From Diplolepis rosae (Eukaryota; Arthropoda; Insecta; Hymenoptera; Diplolepididae), in contig JAPYXD010000686.1 in NCBI GenBank assembly GCA_030998225.1, forward strand, positions 3,224,001 to 3,288,000: DNA of 64,000 nt, written 5' to 3'. Below the pieces are notes generated by a model that had not been told where the DNA came from, made no database searches, and saw only the letters and a list, made by a program, of their open reading frames with translations. Each line of letters starts with the position of its first letter. The first letter of the stretch is position 1. The translations under genes were made by a program, and so were the position numbers. Below are positions 17,903-45,722 of this stretch, one piece after another.

Positions 17903-17943
17903 TCCACAACTTTTCTCACAGAAACTTGTTAACGCCATTCAAT

Positions 17944-18520
17944 TCCTACTGCAGATGAGGCTCCAATTTTTTCAAGAAAATATAGATTTCCCCCAGTTAA
18001 CAAGGAACAAATGACAAGACAAGTCGATGACTTATTAGAAAATAAAAGAATCAATCCCTCACAATCACCATATAACACTCCAGTGTGGATAGTTCCTAAA
18101 AAACCTGATTCTCAAGGATACATAAAATGGAGAAAGGTTCTTGATTATCGTTAATTGAATGAAAACACAATTGGCGATTCGTATCCTCTGCCTAATATAA
18201 ACGATATACTTGATTCACTAGGATCAGCAAAATATTTTTCAGTGTTTGATTAAGCTTCTGGTTTTCACCATATAAAAATGGACTCAAAAGACTCTCATAA
18301 AACCGCATTTTCCACTCCTCACGGTCATTACAAATTCGTTAGAATGCTTTTCGGTTTGAAAACAGCACCCGCCACATTTCAAACTTTAATGGATTTAGCA
18401 TTAACTGGATTAATCGGAACGGAAATTTTTGTATACCTTAATGAGATAGTTATATATGCAAATGAATGTAAATGCAGACGCTCTCTCCAGAAACCCTATT
18501 GATGATAACATGGAGAAATC
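17944..18520 (+). pseudogene. pol: Ty3/gypsy reverse transcriptase fragment (decayed)
   Basis: The translation shows 'SQSPYNTPVWIVPKK', 'SYPLPNINDILDSLG', 'FHHIKMDSKDSHKTAFST' and 'FGLKTAPATFQ', the order of Ty3 RT motifs. It has in-frame stops at about 18153 and 18251. The catalytic YLDD box is changed to YLNE near 18435. The sequence then jumps straight to 'VNADALSRNP', the end of RNase H, so the thumb and most of RNase H are deleted. It resembles the minus-strand copy at 32458-33363 and is older. Confidence 0.8.
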
Positions 18521-20085: not shown

Positions 20086-20089
20086 AATG

Positions 20090-21163
20090 GAATAACGCAA
20101 TATCGAAAAAATGAACAACGAACTCATTTAATTGAAGAAGCTCATTCTTCAGCATTAGGAGGCCATAAAGGCGTTACAAAAACTTATAGCCGAATTCGGC
20201 AAAAACTTTTTTGGGAAAATATGAAAGTGGACATTCAAAAATATATTCAAGGCTGCTTACAATGTCAAATGAAATAATTAATCAGAGTCAGAACAAAAAA
20301 TCGTATGGTAACCACTGTCACACTCACTACTGATTTTGAAAAAATATCAATGGACATTTTTGGTCCACTACCTGAGACAAAATCTGGTAAGTTATATATT
20401 CTAACCATACAAGACAATGTTACAAAATATTATTTAGCAATACCTCTTCCTAATCACCAAGCTAGTACGATAGCAGATGCTTTCGTGAAAAAATTTATTT
20501 GCATATTGGGATCACCGAAAGGAGCACTTACTGACCAAGGCAGAGATTTTTAAAGTAATTTATTAAAAAGATTGGCAAACCGTTTTAGAATTAAACAATT
20601 TCGAACCACTGCTTTTCACCCTCAATCAAAAGGGTCATTAGAACGTTCACATCATGTTTTAGGAGAATATCTCAAATAATTTGTCGCAAAAAATTTAGAA
20701 TGGGATGATTGGCTTGAACTAGCAATGTTCTCGTATAATACTAGTCGACATGATGGCACAAAATGTACACTCTATGAATTGATTTTTGGTAAACTAGCTA
20801 GTGAACCTTCCAGTGACTCTTTATCACAACAAGAAAAATTACAAACATAAGACGATTATTTAATTAATTTCGTAACATAACTACACGATATGCGAACACA
20901 AGCAAGAGAGAATCTTATTTCAGCAAAAGAAAAATCGTAAATATATTATGATAAAAAAAAATCCTTTAGAAGTGAAAATTGGAGATAACGTATTCTTATT
21001 ACAAGGAGGTAAAATTAAAAAACTTGACAGCCGTTATACAGGGCCTTATGAAATATTGGAAGTGTTAGGAAAAGGGAATGTCAAAATAAGCTATAAAGGA
21101 AAACTTACTGTAGTTCACATTAATAGACTAAAACGGTCCAATGTGCAAGTTGTAACGTGGTAA
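20090..21163 (+). pseudogene. pol: Ty3/gypsy integrase, decayed
   Basis: Motifs in order: the HHCC zinc finger ('HSSALGGHKGV...CLQCQ', with a stop just after), the first Asp in 'SMDIFGPLP', the second in 'LTDQG' (followed by a stop), Glu in 'GSLERSHH', then the C-terminal domain 'DSRYTGPYEILEVLGKGNV...VVHINRLKR'. There are at least six in-frame stops. It matches the minus copy at 28031-28839 domain by domain. In that copy a CARD-like ORF follows directly. Here the matching ORF lies at 40388, beyond the inserted mariner and provirus. Confidence 0.85.
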
Positions 21164-23397: not shown

Positions 23398-23436
<39 letters not shown>

Positions 23437-23999: not shown

Positions 24000-24461
24000 T
24001 TAATCTCTTTCTAGTATAATAGTAGAAGCTTCGGAATCATATTCGTATTCCAAAGCTTCGCTGTCTGGATCTGATTCGGAGCCTGTGTCAGGTTCCGAAT
24101 CAGAAATTACTTCGTCATTTTGAATTGTGTGATTTAAATAAGCTATGCATTCATTACAAAGATTGGCCCTTTTTCGTACAAAACATATTTGTTTCTCACA
24201 GATGTAGCAATTTATATCAGAGATATTTTTAAACGGTATGCAAATACGAAGGAGGTCGCCTATATAAGGGACGTCCTCCTGGGGAATTTCTTTAAGAAAA
24301 CAATGTTCGCATAGTGGTTTTAAAGTGATTTGATGCATAAGTGTTATGCCATTAATGTCGAGGCTACTGCAACAAAAATAATCAGAATACTTTGTTTGTC
24401 TTGATGCAATCATTGTATTTTCCTTTGCGGCTTGGGGAGTGTGTTTATTCAAAGGCAGCAT
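24000..24461 (-). CDS. Cys-rich acidic accessory protein, 153 aa, unknown function
   Basis: Open from ATG with no breaks. Cysteine pairs occur in order: 'LCEHCFLKE' (C..C), a single C in 'LRICIPF', 'NCYICEKQICF', then 'LCNECIAYL'. This pattern could bind two zinc ions. The last 35 residues are very acidic ('SDSEPDTGSESDPDSEA'). It resembles the neighbouring ORF 24732-25088 in the order C..C - C..C - C..C and in the segment after it, so the two are probably ancient duplicates. I do not recognise the family. Its position is downstream of env in the - strand provirus. Confidence 0.5.
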   Translation of the reverse strand: MLPLNKHTPQAAKENTMIASRQTKYSDYFCCSSLDINGITLMHQITLKPLCEHCFLKEIPQEDVPYIGDLLRICIPFKNISDINCYICEKQICFVRKRANLCNECIAYLNHTIQNDEVISDSEPDTGSESDPDSEALEYEYDSEASTIILERD

Positions 24462-24731
24462 TTTCCTGTGAGAAAAATATTATGTTTTTAAGTCATAATA
24501 ACGACAACGAAAATTCGCTTTATGTGCTTAAATTGTAATTAAAGAAAAGAATCTCTACTAGAAAGATAGGCTGAATACATATCCACATTTTTTTCTCTTT
24601 TTTTTTTATTCATGCCACAATTAGAAGAAAAAGTATTTGGGAGCATTCAAGTTTAGATTCATGCATACTAAGGATACTTAATACTTTTCTTTTACATCTT
24701 TTTCATATTACATGCGTTATAAGATGAATTT

Positions 24732-25088
24732 TTATATTTCTATTTCAATTCCATTTTGTATGAGATTCTCATTGTCTAGGAACTTATCGATGCATTGGGT
24801 ACATTGAAAGGCTGTACAACAAATGGATATTATTGTGATGTTACAAAAGAAACAGACCGTATTAAATCGACGTATTTGTCCGATTGAATGCCAAGTGTTT
24901 CGACGTTCAAAGCTTTCTTTTTCATAATCTGACAATTTGAGGTAACAATATTCACAAATACGCATTGCATAAGATTGTATAGGATTTAATTTAATGATTA
25001 TGATGAGAGTACAAATCCTTAACATGTCGCTTCTCGAGTTCCTAGAATAAAAGGGTCTTTTTACCATAATTTTTATTGGTGACAGCAT
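24732..25088 (-). CDS. Cys-rich accessory protein, 118 aa, paralogue of the next ORF
   Basis: Intact frame from ATG. It shows 'ICEYCYLKLSDYEKESFE', 'VCFFCNITI' and 'QCTQCIDKFLDNENLIQN', spaced like those of 24000-24461, but lacks the acidic tail. A basic N-terminal stretch ('KRPFYSRNSRSD') could bind nucleic acid. Whether it is translated on its own or by splicing is not known. No homologue is visible in the + strand copy, which has an F-like env in this place. Confidence 0.45.
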   Translation of the reverse strand: MLSPIKIMVKRPFYSRNSRSDMLRICTLIIIIKLNPIQSYAMRICEYCYLKLSDYEKESFERRNTWHSIGQIRRFNTVCFFCNITIISICCTAFQCTQCIDKFLDNENLIQNGIEIEI

Positions 25089-25223
25089 GCAGAGAGATTA
25101 ACTAAACAAAAGTAAAGAATTAGATTAGTAGTCATAATTACACACATATACTCATGTTATTAAAAATTAAAACTAAAATAAAAGTGGCGTGCGTAAAAGA
25201 TTCATGCTTATCGTCTAACAATT

Positions 25224-25825
25224 GTAATAAGGATTTGATGGACTAAATCTACATTTCATGCACTTTTTATAGGAATTTGTGGGTGATTGGTTGTATGAGG
25301 TTGAAGGTTGAGGAATTGGGTGGATTGGTAAGTTATGTCTGATTCTTTTTTTGAAAGGCAGATTATTTATCTGTTTTATATTAGAACGTTCATTTTTGTT
25401 TGATTGTGAAAGTGGATTGGTTTTTAAAGAATTGGATTCTAAATTTACAGTTAAATTTTGAAAGTCATTTTTAAGATTATTAGTTTTTTCTGTTTCTATT
25501 TTCTTAAGTCTTTCATTTGATCAGTTGTACAAAGGCTCATATACGTTGAGGATGTATTTGAATATTTGATGCGGAAAGTTAACATTTGTGGTTTTGAGAT
25601 TCGGAATTTTTTACAAGTATTTTGTAATTCTTGGAAGGATTGATAGGAATTGGAGACTTGGGCTTCTATTTCCGGTATCATATTCAATAATGTTTCTGTA
25701 ACATGCTGCTTTGTTAGTTCAGGATCATATGCCAGCCCAGTTACTTTTTGTTTTTTATACTCTGCTGTGATTTCAAAAAATAATTCATTTTTCTTACCGT
25801 TTTTTAATTTATAAGAGTAGTTCAT
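25224..25825 (-). pseudogene. dsRNA-binding-domain accessory protein after env, broken
   Basis: Starts at ATG 25825, 11 nt after the env stop. Residues 1-55 read as strands and helix 2 of a dsRBD ('FFEITAEYKKQKVTGL', then 'TKQHVTETLLNMI'). Residues 60-105 start a second one ('ELQNTCKKFRISKPQML'). A stop at 25496 ends the frame. The adjacent frame continues to about 25224 and ends with 'CMKCRFSPSNPYYNC', a Cys-rich tail comparable to the zinc knuckle at 46059-46307 of the + copy. The + copy at 44951-46055 is its counterpart. An RNA-binding, possibly RNAi-suppressing role is inferred only from the fold. Confidence 0.5.
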
Positions 25826-25836
25826 GCTGATTACTT

Positions 25837-27594
25837 TTAAAAGTGGAAAGTTTGAGGTATATTAGATAGTTCTGTTAGTTCATTATGTGGATATAGGCTG
25901 GATGATTCTTTTTTCCTTTGTTTACCTGTTTTAATGTTTTCTTCGAGTAGATGTGTAGATATATCGGGTGCTGAAGGATTTGTATCGAGTGATTCTTGTT
26001 GTTGGTCCTGTGTCCTTTGGTTTTCTCTACCTAAATGTAATAGAAGATTAGTTACGGAGTCCCAAATAGCTCCTATTAAGTGAAATGACCAGCCAAAAAC
26101 AGTGTAAAGTGCATAACCGTGAATTACGGTATCAATTATTATTTTAATGCCTCTTATGATAATGATTACTTCTATAAATCCTGCGCTAACTGTGCCGAAA
26201 TTCGAGAATACTGTCCATATTTTTGTCCAAGTTGAGTGAGCAATTTTTTCAATAGTTTCCTCATCTGAAAGATTCATTAACGAGATTCCATGATTTAAAG
26301 TAGATTGACCCATGATTCCGCGAGATAGTGTGTTGAGAACCATCGGTTTTTCCGCGGGAAACATTATATGATCGCGCAGTTTGTTTAAATCCGATTGAGA
26401 ATATATTCCGCTTGTTTCAAGATGAGCTGGATTTGTATATCGCCATGTGGGTTTTGTCAAAGGTTTCATTGTTTCTGGGGGTAAAGATTGGATTTGGAAT
26501 TAATTTATACCAAGCATTTCCTAAAAAATACATAATTGAAACAAAAGAGTTACAACTTGTTTAAGTGCCTTTGTTTGTTAAGATGTGAGTTGTCGGTGTA
26601 ATAAAAAAAGTCTGATTTCCTCTATAGATTGGTAGGTGTAAATAACATTCTTCTGTTTTGCGATATTTAATCTCAATTGGGATACATTTAATTATATGCA
26701 CAACTTCTCCTGCAATTATCGACATGTAACCTGGACCTTTGATTAAATGGTAAGCAAATTCATCAGGAGCTTGAGTAGCTAAAATTAAAGTATTTTAAAA
26801 AAATTGTTGCTCTAATTTACATTTTTGAGTTAAAACATCATGATATAGTTTGTCTACTTCATTACGAATGTATTTGCGTAACCTTTATATAATATTTCAT
26901 ATTTATTAAAATTGCAAATGTCATCTGGTAAAGGATTCCAGAAGGGTTGTCCTCCTTCCATATAAACACAATGAGATTCGGAGAGTGAACATATGACTCC
27001 CGATCGCAGGTGAATTTTGGTTATATTTAGATTGACTGGAGTATAATATTCTTGAAGTGTTATTTTTATTACGCCTTGTACGATTACATTATTCCATGTG
27101 CCAAAAGGGTCTGAATATTGAGTTCCAGAGCAATCTCCATTCCTAGCTAAAGATCCAGCTAGTAATACGTTGTGATAAGATGTTTGATTAACTTTTAAAT
27201 TTGAGATTTGTAGGTTTTTGTCTAAAGATATTTTTCCTGATGAGTGTAGTGTGTTACATTGTTGATGTGAAAGTTCATGTATGTATTCACTTTGTCCATT
27301 ATTTACTGCTGAAATATGTTTATGTATTCCACAGTGAGATATTGTACGTCTAATGACTATCTTGCATTGTCTTACTTGGGTCAGTGTAAAATCACTAATT
27401 TGTAAGAGTTGAATGTAAGTTGTTTCTACGTGTAATTTAGGTTTAGGTATATCGCATTCTCCTACCTCAAGCAGAGACAGTGTTGTTAATTTAAGTTGAT
27501 TCCATCCACAGTCGTATCCGATGATTGCTCCTACAGTCCTTCTCATCAATGTGAGCATGACTAAGGTTGTCAGTTTTTTCTTTCCGGACCCCAT
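25837..27594 (-). pseudogene. env: Chuvirus-like glycoprotein env gene, broken
   Basis: The N-terminal frame (27594-26854) begins with a short hydrophobic leader. Next comes the segment 'IGYDCGWNQLKLTTLSLLEV', a block I associate with chuvirus-type glycoproteins. Paired Cys (C in 'QCKIVIRR', 'SHCGIHKH', 'QQCNTLH') follow. A stop ends it at 26854. The middle is decayed with further stops. The C-terminal frame (26469-25837) has hydrophobic segments 'AGFIEVIIIIRGIKIIID' and 'LYTVFGWSFHLIGAIWD', expected for a membrane anchor, then a hydrophilic tail. The + copy at 40789-44817 is homologous. Class III-type glycoproteins of this sort mediate entry. This copy is not expressible as a single protein. 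Confidence 0.65.
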
Positions 27595-27713
27595 GTCTAG
27601 AAAAGGAATTTTTTTAGTTAACAAATTTTTATTCGTTTTCAGAAATAAAATTTATTTGTTAACTGATTTGTTATTCTTTTTTATATTGGGTATAATAAAT
27701 ACTTTTTCAATAC

Positions 27714-27995
27714 TTATTCAACGAGATCGCAAATTTCTGCTAATAATCCTTGTCCAGATTGTCGTAAACTTAGTATACAATTGTGGTATGCAAGTAGACC
27801 ACGAGTTTTTATTGCGAGTATTATGTCTTCTATAGTCGATGGTTTTGTTATATCATAAAGCCATAGTGGAATGTTATGATCATCTCGGTTGAAGATTTTA
27901 TTTCTTATTAGGAATGGCCAAATTGTTACTATATCTATGTTGTTGACAAGAAGATCGCAATATTTATCTATTCTTTTTCGATGGATGGGATCCAT
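27714..27995 (-). CDS. CARD-only-like small protein, 93 aa
   Basis: The ATG at 27995 lies 31 nt after the pol stop, and the protein ends just before env. The whole length fits one caspase recruitment domain: six likely helices, starting with 'IHRKRIDKYCDLLVNNI' and 'IVTIWPFLIRNKI', an Asp pair 'NRDDHN', then 'EDIILAIKTRG', 'LAYHNCILSLRQSG' and 'GLLAEICDLV'. The run 'RG..AY...L.SLR..G...LA' is the most typical part of the CARD pattern and resembles apical caspase and adaptor CARDs. The frame has no stops even though neighbouring pol and env are broken. A homologue sits at the same position in the + copy (40388). A decoy of apoptosome or inflammatory-type CARD assembly is a hypothesis. Death-fold relatives (DD, PYD) are the main alternative. 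Confidence 0.65.
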   Translation of the reverse strand: MDPIHRKRIDKYCDLLVNNIDIVTIWPFLIRNKIFNRDDHNIPLWLYDITKPSTIEDIILAIKTRGLLAYHNCILSLRQSGQGLLAEICDLVE

Positions 27996-28029: not shown

Positions 28030-28839
28030 GTCTGCTTTATTTAATCGAGCACGTTTTAGTCGATTAATATGTACTACTTTTGGCTTATTTTTAATTTGAA
28101 TTTTAACATTCCCTTTTCCTAAAACTTCTAAAATTTTATAAGGACCAGAATATTGATTTTCGAGTTTTTTAGGTTTCGGACCACTTAGTAAAAATACTTC
28201 TTCATCAACGTTGAAATTTTGTGGGCTTATATTTCAATCGTAGTATTTTTTTGATTTTTCTTTTGCTGCAATAAGATTATCTCTAGCAATTGCTCTTATT
28301 TCATGAAGTCGGGTTACTAATTTAATAAAGTAATCATCATATGTTTCTAGTTTTTCATGTTCTGGAAGGGGTTCGCTTGAAGGTTGTCTGGCATGAATGC
28401 TTGTGTTGTTAGAAAATGTGGCTAGTTCTATCCAGTCATCCCATTCAGAATTTTTACTAACAAATTGTTTTAAATATTCAGCAAGTTCATGATGAGATCT
28501 TTCCAAAGATCCATTTGATTGTGGATGAAAAGCTGTTGTTTTGAATTGACGAATTCTAAATATTTTGCCTAATCTTCGGATAAGATTACTTAAGACATTT
28601 TTTCCTTGATCAGTAAGAACTGCTCTAGGTGATCCGAAAATGCATATAAATTTCTTCACAAGAGCATCTGCTATAGTACTTGCGAGAGAATTAGGAAGTG
28701 GTATTGCTAATGAGTACTTAGTAAGGTTATCTTGAATTGTTAATATATATTCGTTTAATTTTTGTGTCACAGGCAATGGACCTACAATGTCCATAGAAAC
28801 TTTTTCAAAGGCAGTTGCAGGAGTATCAATTATTATCAT
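28030..28839 (-). pseudogene. pol: Ty3/gypsy integrase, broken
   Basis: 'SMDIVGPLP', 'LTDQG' and 'GSLERSHH' carry the D, D and E catalytic residues. The sequence between 'FSNNTSIH' and 'ARQPSSEP' is shorter than in the + copy, so about 15 residues are deleted. A stop falls at 28234. The C-terminal domain continues as 'ENQYSGPYKILEVLGKGNV' and 'VVHINRLKRA' to the pol stop at 28027-28029. The HHCC finger upstream (28900-28990) is frameshifted right after 'SALGGHKG'. Confidence 0.85.
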
Positions 28840-29832
28840 AGGTTCTTTTGTTTTTACCCGTACAAGTTTTTTTAATTGACATTTTAAACAAGTTTGAATA
28901 CATTTTTGAATATCTAGTTTCCTTTATGTCCACCTAAGGCCGATGAGTGAGCTTCTTCGATTAATTGAGATTTTTGTTCTTCAGTTGCATATTGTGTAAT
29001 TCCATTACATATTATGATTTTTATTGATGAGTCAAAAAAAGCTAATTTTATGGTACTTAAAACTTCTTCCCATGAAATATTATTAATTTCTGGTGTTTTT
29101 GCTATACTAATTGTGCGTAATTTAAGGCTCTTTGCTTTTGAATGAAGTGAACTTAAATTTTCTTTTCATTCAGATTCTATTGGTAATGCTAGGTGGTACT
29201 GTAGTCCTCTACGAAATTCTTGTACATGACCTACGCAAAGATTTTTAAATTGGGGTAACTCGTTACGTTTCAGTAAAATTTTAGAACCATTATCTCGTGG
29301 TTCATTTTTGGTTGAAATAAAATAAGCATAATTGTCCTTACGCATTGTAAGTTGATCTCGACATTCGATTATATTGCGGTTTATCTTTAAGTTTACGGCC
29401 GGCAGGTCCTTCTCAGCGGGGGGCAGTTCCGGTGGCGGTCGATTTCCTAAGTCTTCAGATACTATATTTTGAGTTTGTGTGTCTAGGTCATTATTAAAGT
29501 CTTCATTATTTTCTTATTCGGTATCTTCTAAATGATGATTTTTGTGTTGTAGAGAATTTTCTTCCATTAAAATATCGGATTCATCAGAAAAAGAATCCAA
29601 ATTTGTGTTTTCTTTGATCAAAGGATTTTTATTAAATTCATAATCTGAATCAATTTCATTTCCATCTTCTTCAAGATCATAATTTTCTTTTTCTTTCTGT
29701 TTCTTTTTCTGAGGTTTGTTCTTATTTTTGATTAAAATTTTTAGTGTAACCTTTCTTGGTCTGCCTCTTTTTCTCCCAGATATAGGTACTGATATAGTTT
29801 TATTCTTAATAATTTTTCGTTTTTATTTTCTC
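28840..29832 (-). pseudogene. Pol linker and integrase N-terminus of the provirus
   Basis: Minus-strand remnants only. The zinc-finger part of integrase is damaged at about 28920. Upstream is an acidic and Lys-rich linker with several stops (for example near 29515 and 29830). It corresponds to 19000-20280 of the + copy. Confidence 0.6.
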
Positions 29833-30010: not shown

Positions 30011-31302
30011 CTAGGTTGTTCAAAAAGTTTTGAAAGCGGAAATGAAAATACGTTTTTTTTGGTGAAATCACTTTTATTGCTCAGTATAATCTCCCATAAG
30101 ATCAATAAATTTGGTCCAACGGTCTTCCAACTTGTTTATCCCATCATGGAAGTGACTTTCTGAAAGGCCTGCAAAATACTCCTCTACGACGGCTATAACC
30201 TCTTCGTTTGATGAAAAATGCTTCCCACGAAGGAATTTCTTGAGGTGTGGGAACAGCCAGAAGTCAGAGGGAGCTAAATCAGGCGAATAAGGTAGATGCT
30301 GCAACAATTCGTACTTTAATTCGGTTATTTTAGTGATGGTTTTTTGAGCTGTGTGAGCGGGTGCATTGTCTTGATGAAAAATGATTTTTTTCTTCTGCAA
30401 ACCGGGTCTTTTTTCACGAATTTTTGCATCCAATTGATCCAAAAGGTTACAATAATATTCAGAATTTATTGTTTTGCCAGTTTGGAGATAATCCACCAAT
30501 AAAATCCCTTTTGCATCCCAAAAAACTGATGCTAACACCTTCTTCGCCGATTTCTGGACACGAACTCGCTTCGGTGCCGAAGTGCCTGGTTCACACCACT
30601 CCTTAGCCTCTTGTTTTGATTCAGGATCATGATGGAAGACCCAAGTCTCATCCATAGTGATGAATCGACGCAAAAAACCCTTTTTATCCTTTCGAAAACG
30701 CTCCAAATGTTGCTCAGAAAGTCGCATTCGAACGTGTTTTTGTTCCATTGTGAGCGAATGCGGCACCCATTGTGCACAGAGCTTTCTGAAACCCAAAACT
30801 TCACGTAAAATATGACTCACACTGCCTAATGAGATGTCTAGGGCCTCTGCTAAATCTCTCTTGGTCAATCGACGATCTCCCAAAACCATATCCTGTACTT
30901 TTGCTATGAATGCTGGTGTTGATGCACTTTTTGGACGTCCTGAGAGTGGATCGACTTCAACGCTTTTTCGACCACGTCCAAACTCTAAAACCCATCGATG
31001 CACACTTGGAAATGAAGGAGCAGCTTCCTTTAACACTTTCGCCATTTTTGTATGAATTTCCGTTGTTGATAAACCTTCCAAAACAAAGAATTTTATCACT
31101 GCACGATATTCGGTTTTTTCCATTGTACAAAAATACACTGACACGTCAACTTCAAATGGCTTGTAAACAAGCAATGAATTGACAGAGTGGAATGACACTT
31201 TGAGTATGTTCATATGAAAGATGAAATCTTAAAATGGCGTAGAAGTTTTGGTTCTTCTACTGCTCTATAGATGTCGCTTTCAAAACATTTTGAACAACCT
31301 AG
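30011..31302 (-). mobile_element. Mariner, irritans-type, complete and intact
   Basis: The inverted ends CTAGGTTGTTCAAAA...TTTTGAAAGCG match over about 27 bp with one difference. TA lies on both sides (30009-30010 and 31303-31304). The length, 1292 bp, is normal for mariner. It sits in the RNase H-integrase linker of the provirus, whose sequence continues on both sides, and is the youngest insertion in the nest. Confidence 0.92.
30074..31123 (-). CDS. Mariner transposase, intact, 349 aa
   Basis: I chose the ATG at 31123 ('MEKTEYRAVIKFFVLEGLS') because the upstream codons fall in the 5' untranslated part and family members have about 345-350 residues. An N-terminal helix-turn-helix pair (about 1-110) includes 'LTKRDLAEALDISLGSVSHI', with the linker around 'WVPHSL'. 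The DD34D catalytic triad is present: Asp in 'TMDETWVFHH', Asp in 'FHQDNAPAH', and Asp in 'YSPDLAPSDFWLFP'. The sequence 'VFWDAKGILLVDYLQTGKT' points to the irritans subfamily. No stops or frameshifts are present, so it could still be active. The enzyme cuts at the element ends and inserts at TA. Confidence 0.95.
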   Translation of the reverse strand: MEKTEYRAVIKFFVLEGLSTTEIHTKMAKVLKEAAPSFPSVHRWVLEFGRGRKSVEVDPLSGRPKSASTPAFIAKVQDMVLGDRRLTKRDLAEALDISLGSVSHILREVLGFRKLCAQWVPHSLTMEQKHVRMRLSEQHLERFRKDKKGFLRRFITMDETWVFHHDPESKQEAKEWCEPGTSAPKRVRVQKSAKKVLASVFWDAKGILLVDYLQTGKTINSEYYCNLLDQLDAKIREKRPGLQKKKIIFHQDNAPAHTAQKTITKITELKYELLQHLPYSPDLAPSDFWLFPHLKKFLRGKHFSSNEEVIAVVEEYFAGLSESHFHDGINKLEDRWTKFIDLMGDYTEQ

Positions 31303-31309
31303 TATATAA

Positions 31310-32460
31310 GATTACCAAATTTTCGGTTTCGTCATCAGAGCTTGAATTTTGATTGAAGGATTGTTTTTCCTCGAGTTTTGAAGAATTTGTGGCTACCGGA
31401 GTTTCGGGCTCGCCATCAGAATTTTTGTCGTTAATATATGTTTGTATTAAATAGAAAGGATTTGTATGTTTCTTAGAATTTGTAGATTTTGTAGGATTTG
31501 TTGATTTTGTAGATCTTGTTTTCGTCTCATAATTCTCTTCTTTATCATTTTCTTTGATGAAATATTTTGAATCATTATTGTTTTTAGATTCAGCGGTAAT
31601 TGTTTTATTTTCATTTTCTTTAATATTCTCAACAGGATTTCGAGATAATGCATCAGCATTAACATTCGTTTTTCCTGCTTTATATACCACATCGAAGTCA
31701 TATTCGGCTAATTTAAATCTCCATCTTGTTACTCGAGAACAAGGGTCTTTAGAATTTTGGAACCATATTAATGGTTTATGGTCGGTTACTAGAGTAAATC
31801 GTCTGCTGTAAAAGTAAGGTCGAAAGTGCTGAACGGAGAAAAGTATTGCTAGTGCTTCTTTTTCATAAGTGTCGAATTTTCTTTCACTGTCACTAAGTGT
31901 ACGAGAAGTATAAGCTATCGGTTTATCTTGTCCTATTTTTCCTTGAGAAAGTATGCCTCCTATCGCATATCCGGATGCGTCTGTAGTTAATATAAAAGGT
32001 TTGGAAAAATCTGGTCGCTGCAGTAACGGTTCGTCGCATAATTTTTGTTTTAAATTATCGAATGCTACTTGCTATTTTTCAGTCCAAACAAAACGTGTGT
32101 CCTTTTTTAGAAGTTGTTTCAAGGGACTTGCAATTTTCGAGAAATTTTCTATAAATCTTCTGTAATAACCGGCTAAACCTAAAATTGTTTAATATTCTTT
32201 TCATTTTTTGGTCTTGAAAATTTTTGTACAGATTTTATTTTTTAAGGATCGGGTCTAACTCCGTTTTTGTCCTCAATGTGTCCTAAATAAGCTAGCTCAG
32301 GTCTGATAAATTCACATTTATCAGGTTGCAAATGTAAGTTACTTTTTCTAAGTCGATTCATAAGTTCATCGAATTTTGTTTCATGTTCTTCTAATGTATC
32401 TGCATATAGAACAATATCATCTAGATAAACAAAAAGTTCGGTTCCTTGTAATCCTGTTTA
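31310..32460 (-). pseudogene. pol: RT palm/thumb and RNase H of the provirus
   Basis: Read on -, after the stop at 32458-32460 come the catalytic 'FVYLDDIVLYAD', 'LAYLGHIEDKNG', and RNase H signatures 'FRPYFYSRRFTLVTDHKPL' and 'VNADALSRNP' (the end of RNase H). Stops occur near 32250 and 32190. After the RNase H end an Asn/Ser/Lys-rich linker runs to the mariner insertion. Confidence 0.8.
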
Positions 32461-33363
32461 TACTATATCCATAAGTCTTTGGAATGTTGCTGGCGCATTT
32501 TTTAATCCAAAAGGCATTCTATCAAATTCGTAGTGTCCAAATGGAGTTGAAAAAGCTGTTTTATGTGAATCTTTAGGATCCATTGGAATATGATGGAATC
32601 CAGTGGCTATATCAAAGACTGAAAAATATCGCGCGTTTCCCAATTGATCTAAAATGTCAATTATGCTTGGTAATGGATAGGAGTCTCCGATCGTTTTGTC
32701 ACTTAATTTCCTGAAATCTAAAACCATTCTCCACTTTCTTTGTCCATGTGAATCTAGTTTTTTAGGTACAATAAATACTGGTGTATTATAAGGTGATTGT
32801 GAAGGCTTAATTATTTTATTTTTTAAAAGTTCATTAACTTGTTTAGTGATTTCTTCTTTGTATGCTGGTGGAAATCTATATTGTTTTGAGAAAATTGGTC
32901 GTTCATCTACTGTAGGAATTAAATGCATAGCAGTATTAGTTGGTTCTAAAGGTTTATCTGGTATTTGGAATCTATCTGAATGTTTAACAATTAATTTTGT
33001 TACATGATTGAACTCTTCTTGAATCAAGTGATCTAAACGAAGTAATTCTTTGATTATTTTAATTCTACTTTCTCCTGTGATTTTATAAAATTGAGATATT
33101 ATTTGTTCTGTGTCACTAGAATTTATAAATTTGTCTATTAATTCTTCAGGGGATTTGTTATGATTCTTGTTCGTAAAAGTGTTAATTTGTTTTGTAATTG
33201 GTTTAATTAAAGTACTACTCATTGTGATTTCTTCAAAATCTTCTAGCATAACTATAGGACTTTCTAGTTCTATAGGTATAGAAAGTATGCTTGCTACTTT
33301 TATATAGGCTTTTCCACCATGATCTTTGACAATAGAATTTCCTGCATATATTCCTTTTTTCAA
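32461..33363 (-). pseudogene. pol: Ty3/gypsy reverse transcriptase, N-terminal part
   Basis: A 300-codon open frame. It has 'SQSPYNTPVFIVPKK', 'WRMVLDFRKLSDKTIGDSYP', 'FSVFDIATGFHHIPMD' (first catalytic Asp) and 'MPFGLKNAPATFQRLMD', ending in a stop before the YLDD box. The upstream 150 residues form the spacer after protease. It is better preserved than the + copy at 17944. Confidence 0.85.
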
Positions 33364-33390
33364 ATTATGTAAAGGTATAAATCCTTCTTT

Positions 33391-33735
33391 TTAATTTGTA
33401 TTTGAAATTCGGATACAAAGAGTATAGATAAATAGTATAGATATATAATTTATACTGACGTCATTATCAGTGAAAAATTCGGATCCTAGTACTCCATCTT
33501 CTTCTACTGGTACACTATTTGGAATTAAATTAAAAATTGTGGGATATCCAAAAATATTGAGTGTTATCTGACCCAATGTATAAACTGGTACACTATTTAT
33601 ACATGTGAGGCGTAAAATTTCATCCTGATTTATTTCCACGTTGTGATCAATTATATTTAGTTTTATTAAATTACGTCCTGCTCCTGTGTCTATCACCATA
33701 CGTGCTGGGTTTTTCAGACCATCAGCAGATACCAT
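33391..33735 (-). pseudogene. pro: Retroelement aspartic protease
   Basis: 'ARMVIDTGAGRNLI' holds the catalytic DTG. 'LGQITLNIFGYPTIFNLIP' and 'EEDGVLGSEFF' follow the usual strand pattern, the latter being the ILG/ALGxxF-type element. It cleaves Gag and Pol in the particle. A stop separates it from the RT frame (about 33380-33390). The protease at 63.5-63.9 kb is its close homologue. Confidence 0.8.
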
Positions 33736-34030
33736 AATAGAAGGAATTAGGTTGTCTGAGTGTACATTTATTTTTGTATTTATAATATTCTGATTGGAAG
33801 TGGGTGCTGTAAAATGTTTTAAAAGGCCTCCCTCATTGCACCCTGAGCGGGGAGGGGTCTGGCGTTTCCCTGGTTCTGTTTCTCAGCTCTTTTAGGTTGT
33901 TGTTGCTGTTTAAGCGATTCGTTGTATGCTTGACGCCGAATTTGTCAATTGTCTGGCCTATTTTTTTACAGTAATTACAATTTTTATTATTATTTATTTT
34001 TGGATAATTCGCTGAAGCATTTTGAAATTC

Positions 34031-35551
34031 TCAATTTCTATTAAAATTGCTAGTTGTTTGCTGTCTCCATGAACTTTGGTTTGGTAAGAACGACTGAGGT
34101 CGCCATTGACCTGGATTCTCCTGACGGGGGATCCATTGACTCACGTTTGATTGTGGACCTCTGTTAAAAGGTTGCCGTTGATTATTTCTTTCGTACAAAT
34201 TTTTATTATATAGAGGATTTCTTATAGGCTGTAATGTTTTTCCATAATTGTTTGAATATCCTTGTCTGTTTGAGGTTATTTTATTCCATTGTCTACAGGT
34301 GGGAGCTGTATGTCCTCTTCTTCCACAGATTTGACAAAAAATATCTTCTTTAGCAATATTTATTCTATTCCTGTCTCTTTTTTCTGAAGAATCTGTAAAA
34401 TTATCATCTTTCTGTTTATACGGTGAGCGTGCAGACCGCAGTGCTGCAGTTACTGTAAGTTTTCTTTCCATTTCTATGGCATTATTTACTGTGTCCTTAA
34501 AGTTGTGAATGCCTTGTAATCTAGATTCAATTTCGGTTTTTAATCCTCGTAAAAAGCAATCCCGAATGTCGCTGTCAAGGGCTGCTTGAAAGTTTGCGTC
34601 TATTTTATCATTATTATTTGCTTTATGGGCATCTAATATTTTTTCTCCGAGTTTCCTAACACGAGTTACGTAGAAAATTACTTTCTCACTATCCCATTGA
34701 TAAATGTTACCTAATTCACCTTGTAATTGATATACTGATTTATTTAAGGAATAAACGTGTTTAAGACTATCTATAATATCTTCTACACTTCTGTATTGTC
34801 CTCCACTGACATTAGTTAAGTTTGATTCTGTCCCTGCAGGAAACATATCTTTTGCTTCTCTACATCCTTCTATAAATTGATCCAGAGATATATTATCTCC
34901 TGTAAATATTGGTACAACTTCTAGTGCATCTCGCAATGATACTACTTGATTATGAGCAACAGTTATAATTTGTGGGTTATTGGTAGTCATTTTATTTGAA
35001 ATAGGCGAATATTCTTCTTTATATTGTTTAGTTAGAGGTTCTAATACTTGTGGATCGATAGAAATTGATTTTTCGGGATCTTCTGCTAATTTGCCTGGAA
35101 ATTTGTAATTTAATTCACGGTCTGAATCTTCTGAGGATTCAGATAAATGTAATTGTTCTTTATAATTTGAAGTATTTGTTGGGATCAAAGTGCGGTCAAA
35201 TTTATCGACTATAGTAGAATTTCCGGTTAAATTTGATGTATCAAAAATACTTTTATAGAATAATATTGAATCTGTTAAAGTTGATCGGTCGTTTGGGGGT
35301 ATACTAGAACTAATTATTATACTAGTTTCTTGATTAGAATTTTCTGATAACTAATTTTTGGGACGTAGAGGCACTAGTATTTGAAGGAGTATTTGGAATT
35401 TTCGAATCCTGGTTTTCAGCTGTTCTTTCTTAATTTCAAAAGTTTTTTTCCTATTGTCTTCTATAATTTTAGCAAGCTTTGGATTGTTTTTAGTCTGACT
35501 ACGAGTAATACTTTTTGTTGTTAAATTATCTTTCTTATTTTCCACAGACAT
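34031..35551 (-). pseudogene. gag: Provirus gag, broken once
   Basis: The ATG at 35551 starts 'TKSITRSQTKNNPKLAKII'. The frame stops at 35351. The rest is open from about 35188 to 34031. Core: 'VVSLRDALEVVPIFTGDN' and 'SVYQLQGELGNIYQWDSEKV'. One zinc knuckle, 'CQICGRRGHTAPTC' (CX2CX4HX4C), lies about 90 residues before the end, followed by an Asn/Gln/Arg-rich tail. Compared with 62295-63461 it lacks the strongest Asn repeats. Confidence 0.8.
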
Positions 35552-36527: not shown

Positions 36528-36540
36528 GAATAATTACCTC

Positions 36541-39052
36541 TGTGACGTCCTAAGTTTTAAAATTATAATATATACATATTTCCTATCTAAAGTCTTAAGC
36601 CAATTGCCCTAACTATGTTCCTCTGTTTATTGTTAAAATTAACAATTAACCGGGTAGAGGACGAGCCAAATGAATTACATTGCAACTGATGTTAATAATA
36701 ATTTATTGTAAAAATACAAATTTTATTTTAACCCAAGCGTCTTTTTTAGTTGTTGGTTACAGGCTGTTTTCCTTTGGTTGGTCGAGTCTGATAGGTCCAA
36801 CCTTAAAGGAAAACACACCGTGAGTCTAAAGGGCTCAAAAGAAAATAGAAAAGAGAACTTTAATAAAAACAATGTTCTTTTAACTTACCGGTTGTTGTTG
36901 ATGAGGAGGCCTCTTGAAAACGATAATCCTTTAGGTTCCGTTAATCCTCTGGTAATCGGGTACCTCCCCTAATTACCCTTGTTGACCAATAGTGGCAGGT
37001 TAATCCTTTGTTTAACAGGTATCCTTATTTTGATACCTCGATGACAATGGCTTAAAATCCAGTTTTATCGAAATTCAGTCCGTTGTTATTAGATTGGTTT
37101 TCCCGAACACGCGGAAATTACGGCCACTTAGATTTATTGCGGTACTGCGACGAAAACCGGTTCTAACGAAGCTGCTCGATCGTACGCTCCCTTACACTCC
37201 CTTAGACTGGTGTTTAGGCCTTGCAGCCTGGCTCATATAGTCGTCTGTAGTCTCAACTCGTAGGTAGAAAGTATGGGAATTTGAGTTCCATGGTTTCAAT
37301 AGCTTTTTCGAAGTCCATTAGAATCTTAGGTGTCAGTGTGGTGAGTTGAGACTATGGGCCAGTTTGCTGGTGTGCTGCGTTGGTGAGCTTAGGGACTCAC
37401 ACCGATTTTCCAAGTTCGTGTGGGTCATGCTTTCGTGGTGTGGGTGTACTCACATCTTTTCAAGGGCTGTGTAAACCCGTACCACCAGGCTTTTAGGGAG
37501 ATTTAGTCGCAAGGGTCAATGACATTATTTGTATACATAGGTAAGGAATAGAGTAACTATAATACAATTGTTGTATATAAATGGTGATTATGATTTGTTT
37601 ATAATTCTATTCATCTTTATATTTACACATTGCTTTTGTTTATAAAATAACATAATAGTGATTTAAATAGTTATTAAAAAGAACGTATTTTATAATTAAT
37701 TGCTGATTGTTGATTAACATCAAATAAGAATATTAACAATGATAATTATTATTATAAACATTATTATTATAAAATTTGAAGTAACATTATTGTTACATAA
37801 TATTTGTTGCAACTTTTATAAACAATATGAAATAATTATAATAATAGTGATTGATAATTATTGTAAATACAAAAATTGAAGTAACATTGTTATTATTTAA
37901 TATTTCTTGCACTTTGACAATTATTGTTAATAACAATATAAAATATTAATAATAATAGTGATTAATAATAATTTTGAATACAAAGGTTGAAGTAATATTA
38001 TTGTTATATAACATTTGTTGCATTTTGTTAATTGTTATTATTAACAATAGTGTCACATCCCGTGACGCATTTGAATGTACTATAGGCACCGGCTAGGTCT
38101 AGAGAGAAATCTGAGGAAATTACTAAAAGAGAGAGAAAAACACCAATTGAAAAGAGAGCTATAACTACGTCACACGCAACGGGAGACTGCGCAACGCGTA
38201 ACGTCACCAAAAAATATAATATAAAAAGGACACGCCGCCAAGGGAAAACTAGTCTTCTGAGCAAAATTAAGTGCGGCAAATTTCTAAAATCTTAAAAGGA
38301 TTCACAGCGTGAGATACGTGTTTAATTCAGTTTTCCGAAGAAACGTGTCGTAAATTCTCCGATTGCACTTTCAATCTTTGAAAGGATCTTAGAGTCAGTG
38401 TAGAGTGAGATAACTATTCTTGTCCTCCTCACACCAGTGGGATATTTGTTTCTGTCTTCCTCATATCAGTGGGATACCTATTGCTGTCTTCGTCGCACCA
38501 GTGGAAGAATCATTCTCTCTCCCTCACACCTGTGAGGATCATTCATAAAAAAGGGACTATTCACAACTCAACAAAGGTACCGAAAATTCTCTCTACTCTT
38601 TACCTATTCCCTGTGCCATTGTTTGAATCTCTGTAAAATTTTAACCTTGTTTGTATCTGTGTTAATTAAAATAAATTCAATTTGTATTACTTTACTAATC
38701 GTTGTGTTCTTTTCATTGACTTATCCTCATCCCTAAGCGAGGATCATTCGATCCTAACTTAAAACGAGGAATCTTCGATCAAAGTTAGTATTTGCATACT
38801 TGTGACGTAACAATAGTAATAATGATAGTTAATAATAATAAAAAGTAATATTTGTTGTAATTAGTATTTTTTCAATAAAATCAATTGTTTATTGATATTT
38901 TAGTTAATAGTAATAGTGAAATTATTTATAAAAACAATTAGATGTATCTAGCAACAATATTTATAACAATAATAAAATGTTTTATATGATATGATAGCAT
39001 AATAGTATTATATAATTATAATATATAATATAACTGTCATGGATACGTGACA
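36541..39052 (-). repeat. 5' LTR of the provirus, interrupted by a solo LTR
   Basis: In + coordinates it starts TGTGACGTCC and ends ATACGTGACA. In element direction that is TGTCACGTAT... to ...GGACGTCACA, so the TG...CA ends are present. Without the insertion at 38051-38812 it is about 1.75 kb. Much of the right part is (TAA/ATT)-rich. Confidence 0.8.
38051..38812 (+). mobile_element. Solo LTR of a related Ty3 family
   Basis: TGTCACATCCCGTGACGC... to ...TTGTGACGTAACA, 762 bp, flanked by ATAG on both sides (38047-38050 and 38813-38816), the 4-bp duplication expected for Ty3. A TATA box 'ataatataaaaagg' lies near 38215-38230. It is the same family as the inverted fragment ending at 50527, and its ends resemble the LTR at 59042-60285. 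It arose by LTR-LTR recombination after insertion into the provirus LTR. Confidence 0.85.
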
Positions 39053-40387: not shown

Positions 40388-40690
40388 ATGAAACAAATTC
40401 ATCGCAAAGGCATAGATGATCTCATTGAAATAGTTCCCTGTTTTGTAGACATGGTAGCTCTCTGGCCATATTTAATTCAAACTGGAATTTTTAACGAAGA
40501 TGACTTTAATATTCCCACATGAAGCAGAAACCTGAACAATTCAGATATAATAAAAGATATTTTTTCTACGATCAAAACAAGAGGATCGGATGCATACAAA
40601 AAATTATTTCTCAGTTTACGGCTATCAAATTACATTGTCATAGCCGACATGTTGGATATAATGAACTAGGAACGCAAAATACAAAAAGTA
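40388..40690 (+). pseudogene. CARD-like ORF of the + strand Ty3 element, broken
   Basis: The ATG at 40388 opens 'IHRKGIDDLIEIVPCFVDMV' and 'ALWPYLIQTGIFNEDDFN', then a stop at about 40520. A neighbouring frame continues 'IIKDIFSTIKTRGSDAY' and 'LFLSLRLSNYIVIADML'. It aligns end to end with the intact 93-aa protein at 27714-27995, with 35-45% identity by eye. The position is the same: upstream of env. This is independent support that the ORF is a regular gene of the family. Confidence 0.55.
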
Positions 40691-40788: not shown

Positions 40789-43700
40789 ATGGGATTACGA
40801 GGCTTCCTTTTGGCACTGCTCACTTGCAACTTCAACTATATAACAACAGTCTACGCCATGATAGGATTCGATTGCGGATCAAATCAATCAAATATTGCGA
40901 CATTATCTTTGCTAGAGGTAGGAGAATGCGATCTACCTCAATCTCAAATACATGTTGAAAGAACTTATATACAACTTTAACAATTGACTGCATTTTCAAA
41001 TACAAAAGTAATACAATGCAAAATAGAAATTCGACGTGCTATTTCTTATTGTGGTATGCACTCACACATTTCCATAGTTGCAAATGGCCACAGTGAATAT
41101 ATACATGATGTTACACGAGATCAATGTAATCAAATGCACACAATAGGAACATTTTTAGTAACCCCTTCTCTTCAGATATCAAAGTTAAAAGTAAATGAAA
41201 CTTCATTTCATTGAGTTACTTTAGCAGGTTCTGTAACACCTAATGGAGACTGTACTGGTACACAATTTTCTGACCCATACGGAACATGGAATAATCTCGT
41301 AGTCCAAGCAATATTCAAAATAACTTTACAAGAACATTACGCGACTATTCATTTAAATTCAAATAAAATTCAATTTGGATCTGGCTTAATGTGCACACTT
41401 TCTGACTCATAATGTACAGACGTAGAATATGGACAAATATTCTGGAATAAATTACCTAATGACGTATCTAATTTTAACAAGTATGAAATTATTTATGAAG
41501 GACCAGCAAATAAAACATATGACAACACGACAGACAATTCTAAAACCTTTTATTCTTTAACGGCTGAAGATTAGTCCAGTCGAATTAGAATTCAAGATGG
41601 ATGCGAGAGCAAGATCCGAGATTTTTATTCGAATCGCTCAAAAATATCATAGTAATTGACGTACCATGTTTTGCGCCTCGAGTTTCCTTGTGCGTTTTGT
41701 AAAACAAATGTTCAAAGCCAAAAAGTGCGAAAATAGGCCATTTTTTAAATACATTTTGTTATTTTACTCTTAAAATATCAGTTTTATGATGAAATTTTAT
41801 TAGAGCAAAGTTGCAAGGCACAAAATTTGCTACAAAATGTTGTGTTGTGAAGTTAAAAGATTTGATTTTCCTCCGCCACAGCGGCCGAACAATAAATAAA
41901 AAATAGTCGAAAAACAGCGATTTTCAGCGTAGGGCAAAAACTTGATTCGGCGCCTTCAAAATCGTCGCGCGCTCTTCGCTGCCACTTATCTCGGCGAATC
42001 GATATAGCAAATCAAGAGCAATCTAATGATGTACATACTTCTAGTCTGTTTTTAAAAGTTTATGAATGTTTAACGTCATTTGGGATTTTTCTAATTTTGA
42101 CATTGCACAATCATACAATTTTCAAAGATAATTCTTAAATACGCAAATACTTTTGCAAATCGTATACCCATTTTGAGTTCAGAATTTAGATTCGCACAAA
42201 ATTTTTTTTACAGCATCTTTTTAGTAAATTAACCAACACTTTTATCGGGATTTTCAAAAAAAAATTTTTTTTTGAGAGATATATTAATTTAAACTTTTGA
42301 TAAAATTGGATAAAATGCTAAATTCTCTTGTGCAGCTCTTGTACAGCTAGTGAGGTGCAATGAATTCTTTTTCCAAGTAGACGGTACCTTTTTTTTATTC
42401 ATAATGATAGTCTTATAATTGTTAAAAAATCAATCCTTTTTGTTAAAAATGGAATGCATTTATTTTTGGAAAATAAAAAGTACACATTCTGTATAGATTA
42501 TGAAACATAAATTTATTATACATAACATAAATAAAAATTACAAAAATATTCATCCGAAAATCTAACGTAATAAGCTAGAAAATAAAACAAACCCGAAATC
42601 GATTAGATTATATCAACTGGAGATAATTAATTTTAAGTACAAGAGAATTTAGCATTTTATCCAATTTTATCAAAAGTTTAAATTAATATATCTCTCAAAA
42701 AAAATTTTTTTTTCGAAAATCCCGAAAAAGTGTTGGTTAATTTATTAAAAAGAAGCTGTAAAAAAAATTTTGTGCGAATCTAAGTTCTGAACTCAAAATG
42801 GGTGTACGATTTGCAAATGTATTTGCGTATTTAAGAATTATCTTCGAAAATTGTATGATTGTGCAATGTCAAAATTAGAAAAATCCAAAATGGCGTTAAC
42901 CATTCATAAACTTTTAAAAACAGACTAGAAGTATGTACATAATTAGATTCCTCTTGATTTGCTATATCGATTTAAAAAAATAATCGTCAAATTTGGTCGA
43001 TTAGAAGCCGAGATAAGTGGCAGCGAAGAGCGCGCGACGATTTTGAAGGCGCCGAATCAAGTTTTTGCCCTACGCTGACTGTTCCCTCCTCTCCGATTTT
43101 TGCCATTCCCGCGCGCGTTTGCCTATCTGTTAGAATTAGTTGCACATAGATCGTCAAAGTAATCGGTTTTCTTCAACAATATATCGAAAGAAAATTGATA
43201 AAGCTATATGCTGGAATTTTTTTTTTCGTTTAATTGTTGCTGAAATCTCACTCACATGCAGCCGACTTTGGGATTCAATAACTTCAGATTGGAAGGTCGA
43301 ATTGAAGCGTTCAAAGTGCTCAAAGATTCATTTTTGCAAGCACTTTCACAGGGTCTTTTCAGACTTGAAATTTGTCAAAAAAACCGCGGAGTTATTCATT
43401 TTGCAATTAATGTACAAATTACAACCCCCTTTTAAATAATCGTTTGAATGTGTTAAAAAATAAAAACCACTCATCTAATCATTGAATATGATAGTTTTAT
43501 ACTTGCAGTATGTGTAAAAAAAATCACGCTATGTGTGAAAAAATTTTCCTGGTGTATATGTTAATTCTTAAAAGTTATGTTATTTTGAAAACTCTTAATA
43601 AACAATTACATTACTCGGTAACTAAAAGAGATATTGAACTCGAGTTTCAGGCATTCGAAAGGTAAAGAATTAAATATTTTAAAGGCGAAACAATCATTTA

Positions 43701-44817
43701 GATTTATTAATATTTTCAATTTTAAATGTGCGTGCAAAAAATCGCTGTTTTTCGACTATTTTTTATTTATTGTTCGGCCGCTGTGGCGGAGGAAAATCAA
43801 ATCTTTTAACTTCACACCACAAAATTTTGTAGCAAATTTTGTGCTCTACAACTTTGCTATAATACAATTCATCATATAAACTGATATTTTAAGAGTAAAA
43901 TAAGAAAATGTATAAAACATGGTACGTCAATTACTATGATATTTTTGAGCGATTCCAATAAAAATCTCGGGTCTTGCTCTCACATCCATGTATCCCAATT
44001 TTCCATCCTAATTCGACTGGACTAATATAACCTTCGTACTGTCTGAAAAAACAAGAAAACCAGTTTGCAGTTACGTTTTAATACAAACTGAACATCCAAA
44101 ATTATTTATTTTTTGATACCAGACCTGGTAATTCATTTTTAGAAAATAAACATTTAGAAGTTTCAAATATGGACATTTTTATATACGTTAACTCTGAATT
44201 TATATATGTGAAAAGACACATATGCACTGAAATAAATAGACTTTATCACGACGTTCTTACTCAACGATGTATACTTGAACAGCAAGTTTTTAGAAATACA
44301 TTAACCTTAGCAACCCAATCACCAGACGATGTTGCAAATTACTTCCATATTCTGTCGAATCCAACCAACTATAGTTAAACCTCTCGCAAAAGCAACATGG
44401 AAGTACACAAATCCTTCATCCTTAGCGACATGTGGCATTTATACTCAATCTGATTTTGATGAACTACGAGATCATATTATGATTCCAGAAGAAAAACCAA
44501 CGATTCTAAATTCTTTAGCAAGAGAAATAACAGGGCATCCAACTATTAATCAAGGAATATCATTAACGAGTTTATTCAATGAAGATGTAATTGATAAAAT
44601 TGCTGAATTGATTAAATTGATAGCGGATACCATTATTCATGGATATGCACTACACAGATTATTTGGATGGTCTCTCCATCTACTAGGCGCCTTCTGGGAT
44701 TCGGTCACTAACCTCTTATTACACTTAGATACCCATCGACCTTCTGGACCTCCTGCTGAGAGCCATCAAAAACTGCTAACAGCTTCAGCGCCACAAATCT
44801 CGAAAGAGGCACCGTAA
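40789..44817 (+). pseudogene. env: Chuvirus-like glycoprotein env of the + element, split by a transposon
   Basis: The first part (40789-41573) has a hydrophobic signal-peptide-like start, then 'MIGFDCGSNQSN' and 'SLLEVGECDLPQ', with Cys spacing like the - copy. Stops fall near 40978, 41212 and 41410. A TA-flanked element (41574-44022) interrupts it. The second part includes 'DVLTQRCILEQQ' and the C-terminal hydrophobic segments 'YALHRLFGWSLHLLGAFWD', ending at 44817 with a Pro/Ser-rich tail. It lacks about 20 residues of the membrane region seen in the other copy. It is not functional. Confidence 0.65.
41574..44022. mobile_element. Palindromic DNA transposon, TA duplication, 2449 bp
   Basis: The ends GTCCAGTCGAATTAG... 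and its complement are flanked by TA (41572-41573 and 44023-44024). Inverted similarity continues inward for about 350 bp ('ccgccacagcggccgaac'). A second, inner pair of arms (about 41934-42330 and 42640-43078) shares 'agggcaaaaacttgattcgg' and centres near 42480. I find no transposase; the ORFs 43140-43439 and 43634-43879 look incidental. It is probably a non-autonomous or fold-back element. Confidence 0.75.
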
Positions 44818-45560: not shown

Positions 45561-45722
45561 GAAAATACAAATGCATTTAAAGTGAAATAACATAATAATC
45601 ATACTACATCGTCTTTTCCTACGAAAAGCTTTAAAAATGTTTTAAATGCGGATATAGACCCCCCAACCAGTACAATAAGTTCTAATATAAAAATTCTATA
45701 CCTATTCAGGAAATGAACTACA

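What the first reader, a model, noticed from the sequence alone, without database searches (positions are those of the whole stretch)
27714..27995. A CARD-only-like gene inside an endogenous-retrovirus-like Ty3 element
Seen: an unbroken 93-codon ORF 31 nt after the pol stop and before env. Its length, helix spacing and the 'IKTRG..AYHNCILSLRQSG' run fit a caspase recruitment domain. Known: CARD-only proteins act as decoys of apoptotic and innate signalling complexes. Inference: the element uses it to delay apoptosis or immune signalling of the cell it occupies. I know of no described Ty3/errantivirus-type element with such a gene.
Basis: partly seen in the sequence, partly recalled or inferred. 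Interest (0 to 1): 0.93.

Follow-up and report, generated by a model that had tools for sequence, protein, structure and literature searches.

The report
CARD gene carried by wasp retroelement
A family of virus-like jumping elements, probably in a wasp, carries a small, well-preserved gene for a caspase recruitment domain, the docking part of the cell-death machinery, which may let the element delay the death of the cell it occupies.

The parts
27714..27995 (-). CARD-only ORF, 93 codons (element 1)
   Evidence: CARD identity
21955..23398 (-). LTR of element 1 (3' in element sense); ends are those of the BLAST alignment
   Evidence: 93.4% identical to 36539-37971 over 1458 columns
36539..37971 (-). 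LTR of element 1 (5' in element sense); ends approximate
34031..35350 (-). gag-like ORF with a weak zinc-knuckle match
   Evidence: PF14893 E 0.011 and PF14392 E 0.016, both below cut-off
33391..33882 (-). protease region of pol (DTGAG seen by eye)
   Evidence: PF13650 E 0.15 only; weak
32458..33390 (-). reverse transcriptase part of pol
   Evidence: PF00078 E 6.4e-19; Ty3 RT 4ol8_A E 5.2e-36
31280..32071 (-). RNase H part of pol
   Evidence: PF17917 E 3.5e-37; Ty3 7q5b_A E 3.5e-23
30074..31228 (-). mariner/Mos1-type transposase gene inserted within pol
   Evidence: PF01359 E 6.5e-24, PF17906 E 7.2e-6
28234..28923 (-). integrase part of pol; the pol-frame stop follows at 28029-28027
   Evidence: PF00665 E 3.6e-9; stop
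26854..27651 (-). env, N-terminal piece, chuvirus-type fusion glycoprotein
   Evidence: PF24664 E 7.6e-82, profile 4-241
25837..26499 (-). env, C-terminal piece; env of this copy is split over frames
   Evidence: PF24664 E 3e-64, profile 450-649
25496..25861 (-). ORF after env, matched in several sister copies, no family over cut-off
24732..25097 (-). cysteine-rich ORF, no family
24000..24479 (-). cysteine-rich ORF, no family
17936..18463 (+). RT of a second, diverged element
   Evidence: 73% DNA identity; 72% aa identity over 17936-18400
20223..21135 (+). integrase of the second element
40388..40663 (+). second CARD copy, 41% identical, one in-frame stop
   Evidence: E 1.9e-18
40846..41511 (+). 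env N part of the second element, with stops
   Evidence: 60% aa identity, E 4.9e-91; three stops in frame
44311..44817 (+). env C part of the second element
   Evidence: PF24664 E 5.9e-39
45717..46055 (+). dsRNA-binding-domain ORF of the second element
   Evidence: PF00035 E 0.0055, below cut-off; TARBP2 2cpn_A E 0.0085; the homologue in L019 passes the cut-off

Best explanation
The ORF is a CARD-only protein gene carried as a regular accessory gene by a Ty3-type, env-bearing retroelement lineage. SHOWN by computation: CARD family and predicted fold, with initiator-caspase CARDs (CED-3, caspase-9, Dronc) as the nearest solved relatives; a fixed place between pol and env; retention as an intact 93-codon frame across diverged subfamilies with a purifying substitution pattern. 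INFERRED: the single CARD, with no protease or NB-ARC attached, binds the CARD of the host initiator caspase (Dronc) or of its adaptor (Dark/Apaf-1), fills the CARD-CARD surface without recruiting a catalytic domain, and so blocks or delays apoptosome-driven death of the cell in which the element is expressed, which buys time for particle production and spread. Also inferred: the element may have captured a spliced transcript of the host's own CARD-only gene.
Confidence: 0.58

Rival explanations
1. CARD, but used as an activator or seed: it nucleates Dronc or Dark assembly at low level (non-apoptotic caspase signalling) or promotes death of the cell, rather than blocking it.
For: CARDs can form activating filaments and disks; many of the structural matches are CARDs in assemblies.
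Against: It has no effector domain. The one viral CARD-only protein with functional data that I saw inhibits apoptosis (PMC4457926, abstract). Killing the cell would not obviously help an element that spreads through living cells (inference).
Confidence: 0.1
2. CARD that acts as a copy or rival of the host's own CARD-only protein (the L041 gene) in a pathway that is not the apoptosome.
For: The nearest cellular homologue that I found is that host gene, the one outlying match in this genome, related to P0041 of Belonocnema kinseyi and P0082 of Leptopilina boulardi.
Against: The nearest solved relatives are initiator-caspase CARDs, which points to the apoptosome. The role of the host gene is unknown.
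Confidence: 0.2
3. Reverse origin: the intron-bearing host gene is a domesticated element CARD, perhaps an antagonist, and the element had the CARD first.
For: In the tree the three host-type rows fall in a 12-row set together with element subfamilies (support 85/87, not starred). Holding the element CARDs as one clade costs 1.37 lnL units, p-AU 0.397, so neither direction is rejected.
Against: In the 45-row tree the host-type rows sit on a basal, unresolved fork. The host gene has an 89-bp GT-AG intron inside the domain and no integrase or env match in its fetched flanks. Loss of an intron through RNA is simpler than a gain (recalled general knowledge).
Confidence: 0.3
4. Passenger or structural role: the ORF is kept for particle or RNA reasons, not for its CARD function.
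For: Some copies carry a truncated 56-codon version with no env matched.
Against: Same 93-codon length, CARD core residues conserved across subfamilies, purifying pattern.
Confidence: 0.07

Closest known systems
Iridovirus CARD-only proteins (e.g. GIV-CARD, 91 aa; Lymphocystis disease virus CARD protein)
   Same: Stand-alone CARD of about 90 aa in a virus-like genome; top BFVD rows, at weak E; GIV-CARD reported to inhibit apoptosis (PMC4457926, abstract)
   Different: Large DNA viruses of fish; no sequence closeness shown; here the carrier is an LTR retroelement, probably of a wasp
Initiator-caspase CARDs: Dronc, CED-3, caspase-9
   Same: Best sequence and fold relatives among solved structures
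   Different: There the CARD is the prodomain of a protease; here no catalytic domain
Host CARD-only gene (L041; homologues Belonocnema kinseyi LOC117174601, Leptopilina boulardi LOC127278982)
   Same: CARD-only, about 100 aa, closest cellular homologue found
   Different: One locus with an intron, no retroelement genes matched beside it
Anakin elements (BEL/Pao with chuvirus glycoprotein, mosquitoes; PMC7642597, passages)
   Same: LTR retroelement with a chuvirus-type env
   Different: Anakin is BEL/Pao; here RT and RNase H best match Ty3. The words CARD and apoptosis do not occur in that paper's main text
Gypsy elements with env in insects: errantiviruses, and gypsy elements with type III fusion glycoproteins (PMC13172572, passages)
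   Same: Ty3-type element with env; a figure legend of PMC13172572 speaks of gypsy elements with type III fusion glycoproteins in mosquitoes
   Different: The errantivirus env is described as likely from baculovirus (PMC12440569, passage), here it is PF24664. CARD is not mentioned in PMC13172572 (0 occurrences)
Gypsy-flanked Jingchuvirales glycoprotein EVEs in Hymenoptera (PMC10084718, Results section and passages)
   Same: Same env type beside Gypsy sequences in Hymenoptera
   Different: That paper saw no clear evidence of glycoprotein capture by Gypsy; here element 1 has LTRs, gag-pol and env, and 28 of 36 places show IN-CARD-env

Membership tests
CARD (PF00619) | Profile score over the curated cut-off (23.9 bits) | tested here: met
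   In one search: L021 30.9, L018 26.6, P0048 27.3, P0047 26.6, P0082 25.1 pass; L011 equals it; P0041 (19.3) and P0051 (13.5) do not pass. The window copy itself does not (14.4), nor P0002 and P0003.
CARD (PF00619) | Six-helix bundle of the death fold, CARD type | tested here: met
CARD (PF00619) | Homotypic CARD-CARD binding | not testable with these tools
   Needs a binding experiment
Viral CARD-only apoptosis inhibitors | Stand-alone CARD encoded by a virus or virus-like element | tested here: met
   93-codon ORF with its own ATG and stop between pol and env
Viral CARD-only apoptosis inhibitors | Inhibition of caspase activation | not testable with these tools
   No functional data
Ty3/Metaviridae | RT and RNase H of Ty3 type, in the order RT-RH-IN | tested here: met
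   Ty3 RT E 5.2e-36; Ty3 RNase H region E 3.5e-23; rve after RH. No RT tree was built.
Ty3/Metaviridae | Flanking LTRs | tested here: met
   93.4% identical pair of about 1.44 kb; exact ends and target-site duplication not resolved
Errantivirus with baculovirus-type env | Baculovirus-derived env | tested here: not met
   Both env pieces match only PF24664 Monjiviricetes_fusion (E 7.6e-82 and 3e-64) at E up to 1 in Pfam
Anakin (BEL/Pao with chuvirus env) | BEL/Pao-type RT | tested here: inconclusive
   Best RT matches in PDB are Ty3, but no BEL/Pao RT was compared directly
dsRNA-binding domain (PF00035), accessory gene of sister subfamilies | Profile score over the curated cut-off (23 bits) | tested here: met
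   L019 25.1 bits; the window ORF 17.7 bits is below; L028 gave no match. No dsRBD was found in element 1 itself (Pfam on its ORFs).

The most novel reading that the evidence does not exclude
An insect Ty3-type endogenous retrovirus lineage has assembled a two-part counter-defence kit: a CARD decoy captured from a host CARD-only gene (as acutely transforming retroviruses capture host genes) against the apoptosome, and, in several subfamilies, a dsRNA-binding protein against RNA interference. Both travel with a chuvirus-type env, and the kit helped the lineage reach a high copy number in this genome.
Probability: 0.33. Interest if true: 0.95.

Novelty: new variant of a known kind. Interest (0 to 1): 0.86.

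Why it matters
Insect retroelements are usually pictured as fought mainly by small RNAs (recalled). A conserved CARD gene would mean that cell death is a selective barrier for them too, and that Ty3-type elements, like some DNA viruses, carry parts of the death machinery. It makes testable whether apoptosis limits retroelement spread in insects. It also documents an LTR-bounded Ty3-type element with a chuvirus-type env in what is probably a hymenopteran, where the 2023 survey (PMC10084718) saw no clear Gypsy capture; gypsy elements with type III fusion glycoproteins are mentioned for mosquitoes (PMC13172572, passage), so the env alone is not the new part.

Tried and rejected
Chance ORF: rejected, because two capped genome lists of 150 matches each and protein lists of 71 and 95 hold relatives, and 21 of 26 places read have the same 93-codon length. 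Other folds: PF24406 (E 0.68 for the window copy; best 0.0068, 3 of 46 members) was set aside as weaker than CARD. Influenza PB2 rows (E 0.29 and up, half-domain) were treated as noise; none appears at E up to 1 with the A4 profile. PDB search with the six-row profile A1 gave nothing. Viral contigs: five pattern matches, none confirmed. CARD near host caspase exons: a profile of my own found only weak matches, all on the minus strand of the loci (best E 0.082), in the fetched flanks of eight PF00656 matches, so the host Dronc CARD was not located and the element CARD could not be compared with it. Origin by tree: not resolved; the Dronc row fell among the element rows on a branch of length 4.1 and the host-type rows fell in a set with element rows (85/87), so that rooting is not reliable. 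Whether env-bearing elements without a CARD also exist in this genome was not tested. Expression: no RNA data at hand. LTR ends and target-site duplication: looked at, not resolved.

Full report
Where it lies. The window is G000:C358:3224001-3288000 of a 757.7-Mb genome in 428 contigs. Named relatives of the protein come from Belonocnema kinseyi (Cynipidae, Cynipoidea) and Leptopilina boulardi (a cynipoid wasp by recall), so the host is probably a cynipoid wasp; that is inference. The element runs on the minus strand between two LTR copies (21955-23398 and 36539-37971, 93.4% identical). Its parts in order are gag-like ORF, RT, RNase H, a mariner-type insertion, integrase, CARD ORF, env in two frames, and further ORFs. 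RT and RNase H best match Ty3 among solved structures. Env matches PF24664 Monjiviricetes_fusion in both pieces.

The ORF. ATG 27995, TAA 27716-27714, 31 nt behind the pol stop. The frame is open upstream to 28040, so a fusion to pol by frameshift is not excluded. The window copy alone gives PF00619 at E 0.04, 14.4 bits, under the 23.9 cut-off. By phmmer its five PDB hits, at E 0.6-1.5, are all named caspase or (pro)caspase-9. This is suggestive, not decisive, and a six-row profile found nothing in PDB.

A standing gene of the lineage. The same window holds a second, diverged element on the plus strand. Its RT (17936-18463) and IN (20223-21135) lie left of element 1; its CARD (40388-40663, 41% identical, one in-frame stop), env pieces and a dsRBD-type ORF lie right of it. 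I read this as element 1 having inserted into element 2; that is inference. In the whole genome, 150 of 1109 candidates were scored with the window protein, and the 150 listed match at 45-100% identity; with P0041 it was 150 of 1113. The lists are capped, so copy number is a lower bound. Of 40 loci held (36 distinct places, taken from the best matches and from a hand-picked spread of identities), 28 places show IN, CARD and an env piece in order; 3 show CARD and env without IN in the fetched flank; 4 show IN and CARD with no env match in the fetched flank; 1 shows the CARD alone. Of 28 loci read for the ORF, 23 (21 of 26 distinct places) have exactly 93 codons, two have a C-terminal extension (117, 119), two are 56-codon truncations, and for one my script found no ATG. 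On 12 of the 27 ORFs kept, chosen to represent subfamilies, Nei-Gojobori dN/dS has a median of 0.21 in 48 of 66 pairs; 18 pairs are saturated; one pair (window copy and L010) is 1.26 on 11 changes. Of the 22 loci with an env N match, four have an open frame of 678-697 codons, stop to stop; the window copy is not such a one.

Neighbour genes. An ORF after env (25496-25861 in element 1) is matched in several sister copies and has no Pfam family over cut-off. A dsRNA-binding-domain gene follows in several other subfamilies (matches in L011, L013, L017, L018, L019, L023, L025, L026, L028). L019 passes PF00035 (25.1 against 23 bits), the window ORF 45717-46055 is below it (17.7 bits) and matches TARBP2 at E 0.0085; L028 gave no Pfam match. 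I found none in element 1 itself or in the fetched flanks of its close sisters L009, L010 and L027.

Host homologue. One place, C395:2883529 (L041), matches exon 2 of Belonocnema LOC117174601 at 72%, E 1.4e-17; the next rows are at 61% identity or lower and E 1.4e-11 or weaker (150 of 739 candidates scored). Exon 1 lies upstream; a GT-AG intron of 89 bp joins them in frame to a 101-aa CARD-only protein. No integrase or env match was found in its fetched flanks of under 1.6 kb. Exon 2 alone gives PF00619 at E 8e-4, 19.8 bits, under the cut-off; exon 1 alone gives none. P0055, from an unnamed source, shows what looks by eye like the same intron read through. In the two named wasps I did not examine the intron. 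The element copies have no intron there. Capture of a spliced transcript by the element is the simpler reading, but the trees do not decide: a basal unresolved fork, a weakly supported place among element rows (85/87), p-AU 0.397.

Mechanism. Established knowledge (recalled): insects activate Dronc through CARD-CARD contact with Dark, and CARD-only proteins of vertebrates and viruses block such contacts. GIV-CARD inhibits apoptosis and lowers caspase-8 and -9 activity (abstract of PMC4457926). With the nearest solved relatives being initiator-caspase CARDs, a decoy of the apoptosome is the most likely role (about 0.6). Steps shown: domain, predicted fold, position, conservation. Steps inferred: expression, binding, effect on cell death, benefit to the element.

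Literature. Ten searches gave no paper that, by its listing, describes a CARD gene in an LTR element; only the listed rows were seen. I saw abstract, outline and passages of PMC12440569, passages of PMC7642597, PMC6540820 and PMC13172572, passages and the Results section of PMC10084718, and the abstract and outline of PMC4457926. PMC10084718 reports Gypsy fragments beside chuvirus-type glycoproteins in Hymenoptera but no clear capture; PMC13172572 mentions gypsy elements with type III fusion glycoproteins. The library lacks most subscription journals, so absence there is weak evidence.

Noticed in passing
45717-46055 (+); L019:789-1109; L011, L018, L023, L025: dsRNA-binding-domain gene after env in several subfamilies; a possible RNAi-directed accessory protein.
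   Followed up: partly
L041:1274-1659 (G000:C395:2883529): Host CARD-only gene with an 89-bp intron, homologous to uncharacterised genes of two named wasps.
   Followed up: partly
17936-21135 and 40388-46055: A second, diverged element on the plus strand, apparently split by the insertion of element 1.
   Followed up: partly
L015:2536-2655; L016:3309-3428: Truncated 56-codon CARD copies with no env matched; look like internal deletion derivatives.
   Followed up: partly
G000: Dozens of copies of one CARD subfamily have the same score and length, which suggests a recent burst.
   Followed up: no
24000-24479 and 24732-25097 (-): Two cysteine-rich ORFs between env and LTR, no Pfam family; alike by eye.
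   Followed up: partly
L010:4931-5680: The ORF after env is 249 aa in this copy and holds a hydrophobic stretch in its second half (by eye).
   Followed up: no
30074-31228 (-) and 39126-40004 (-): Mos1/mariner-type transposase genes, one inside pol of element 1, one just before the second CARD.
   Followed up: partly
17830-17902 (-): Rfam tRNA match (44.4 bits) next to the RT fragment of element 2; ARAGORN reported none.
   Followed up: no
10894-13221 (+): Unbroken 775-aa ORF without a Pfam match at E 0.01; looks like a transposon protein by eye.
   Followed up: partly
P0066: An 87-aa protein that joins the first half of the CARD to env sequence (PF24664), probably a deletion copy.
   Followed up: no
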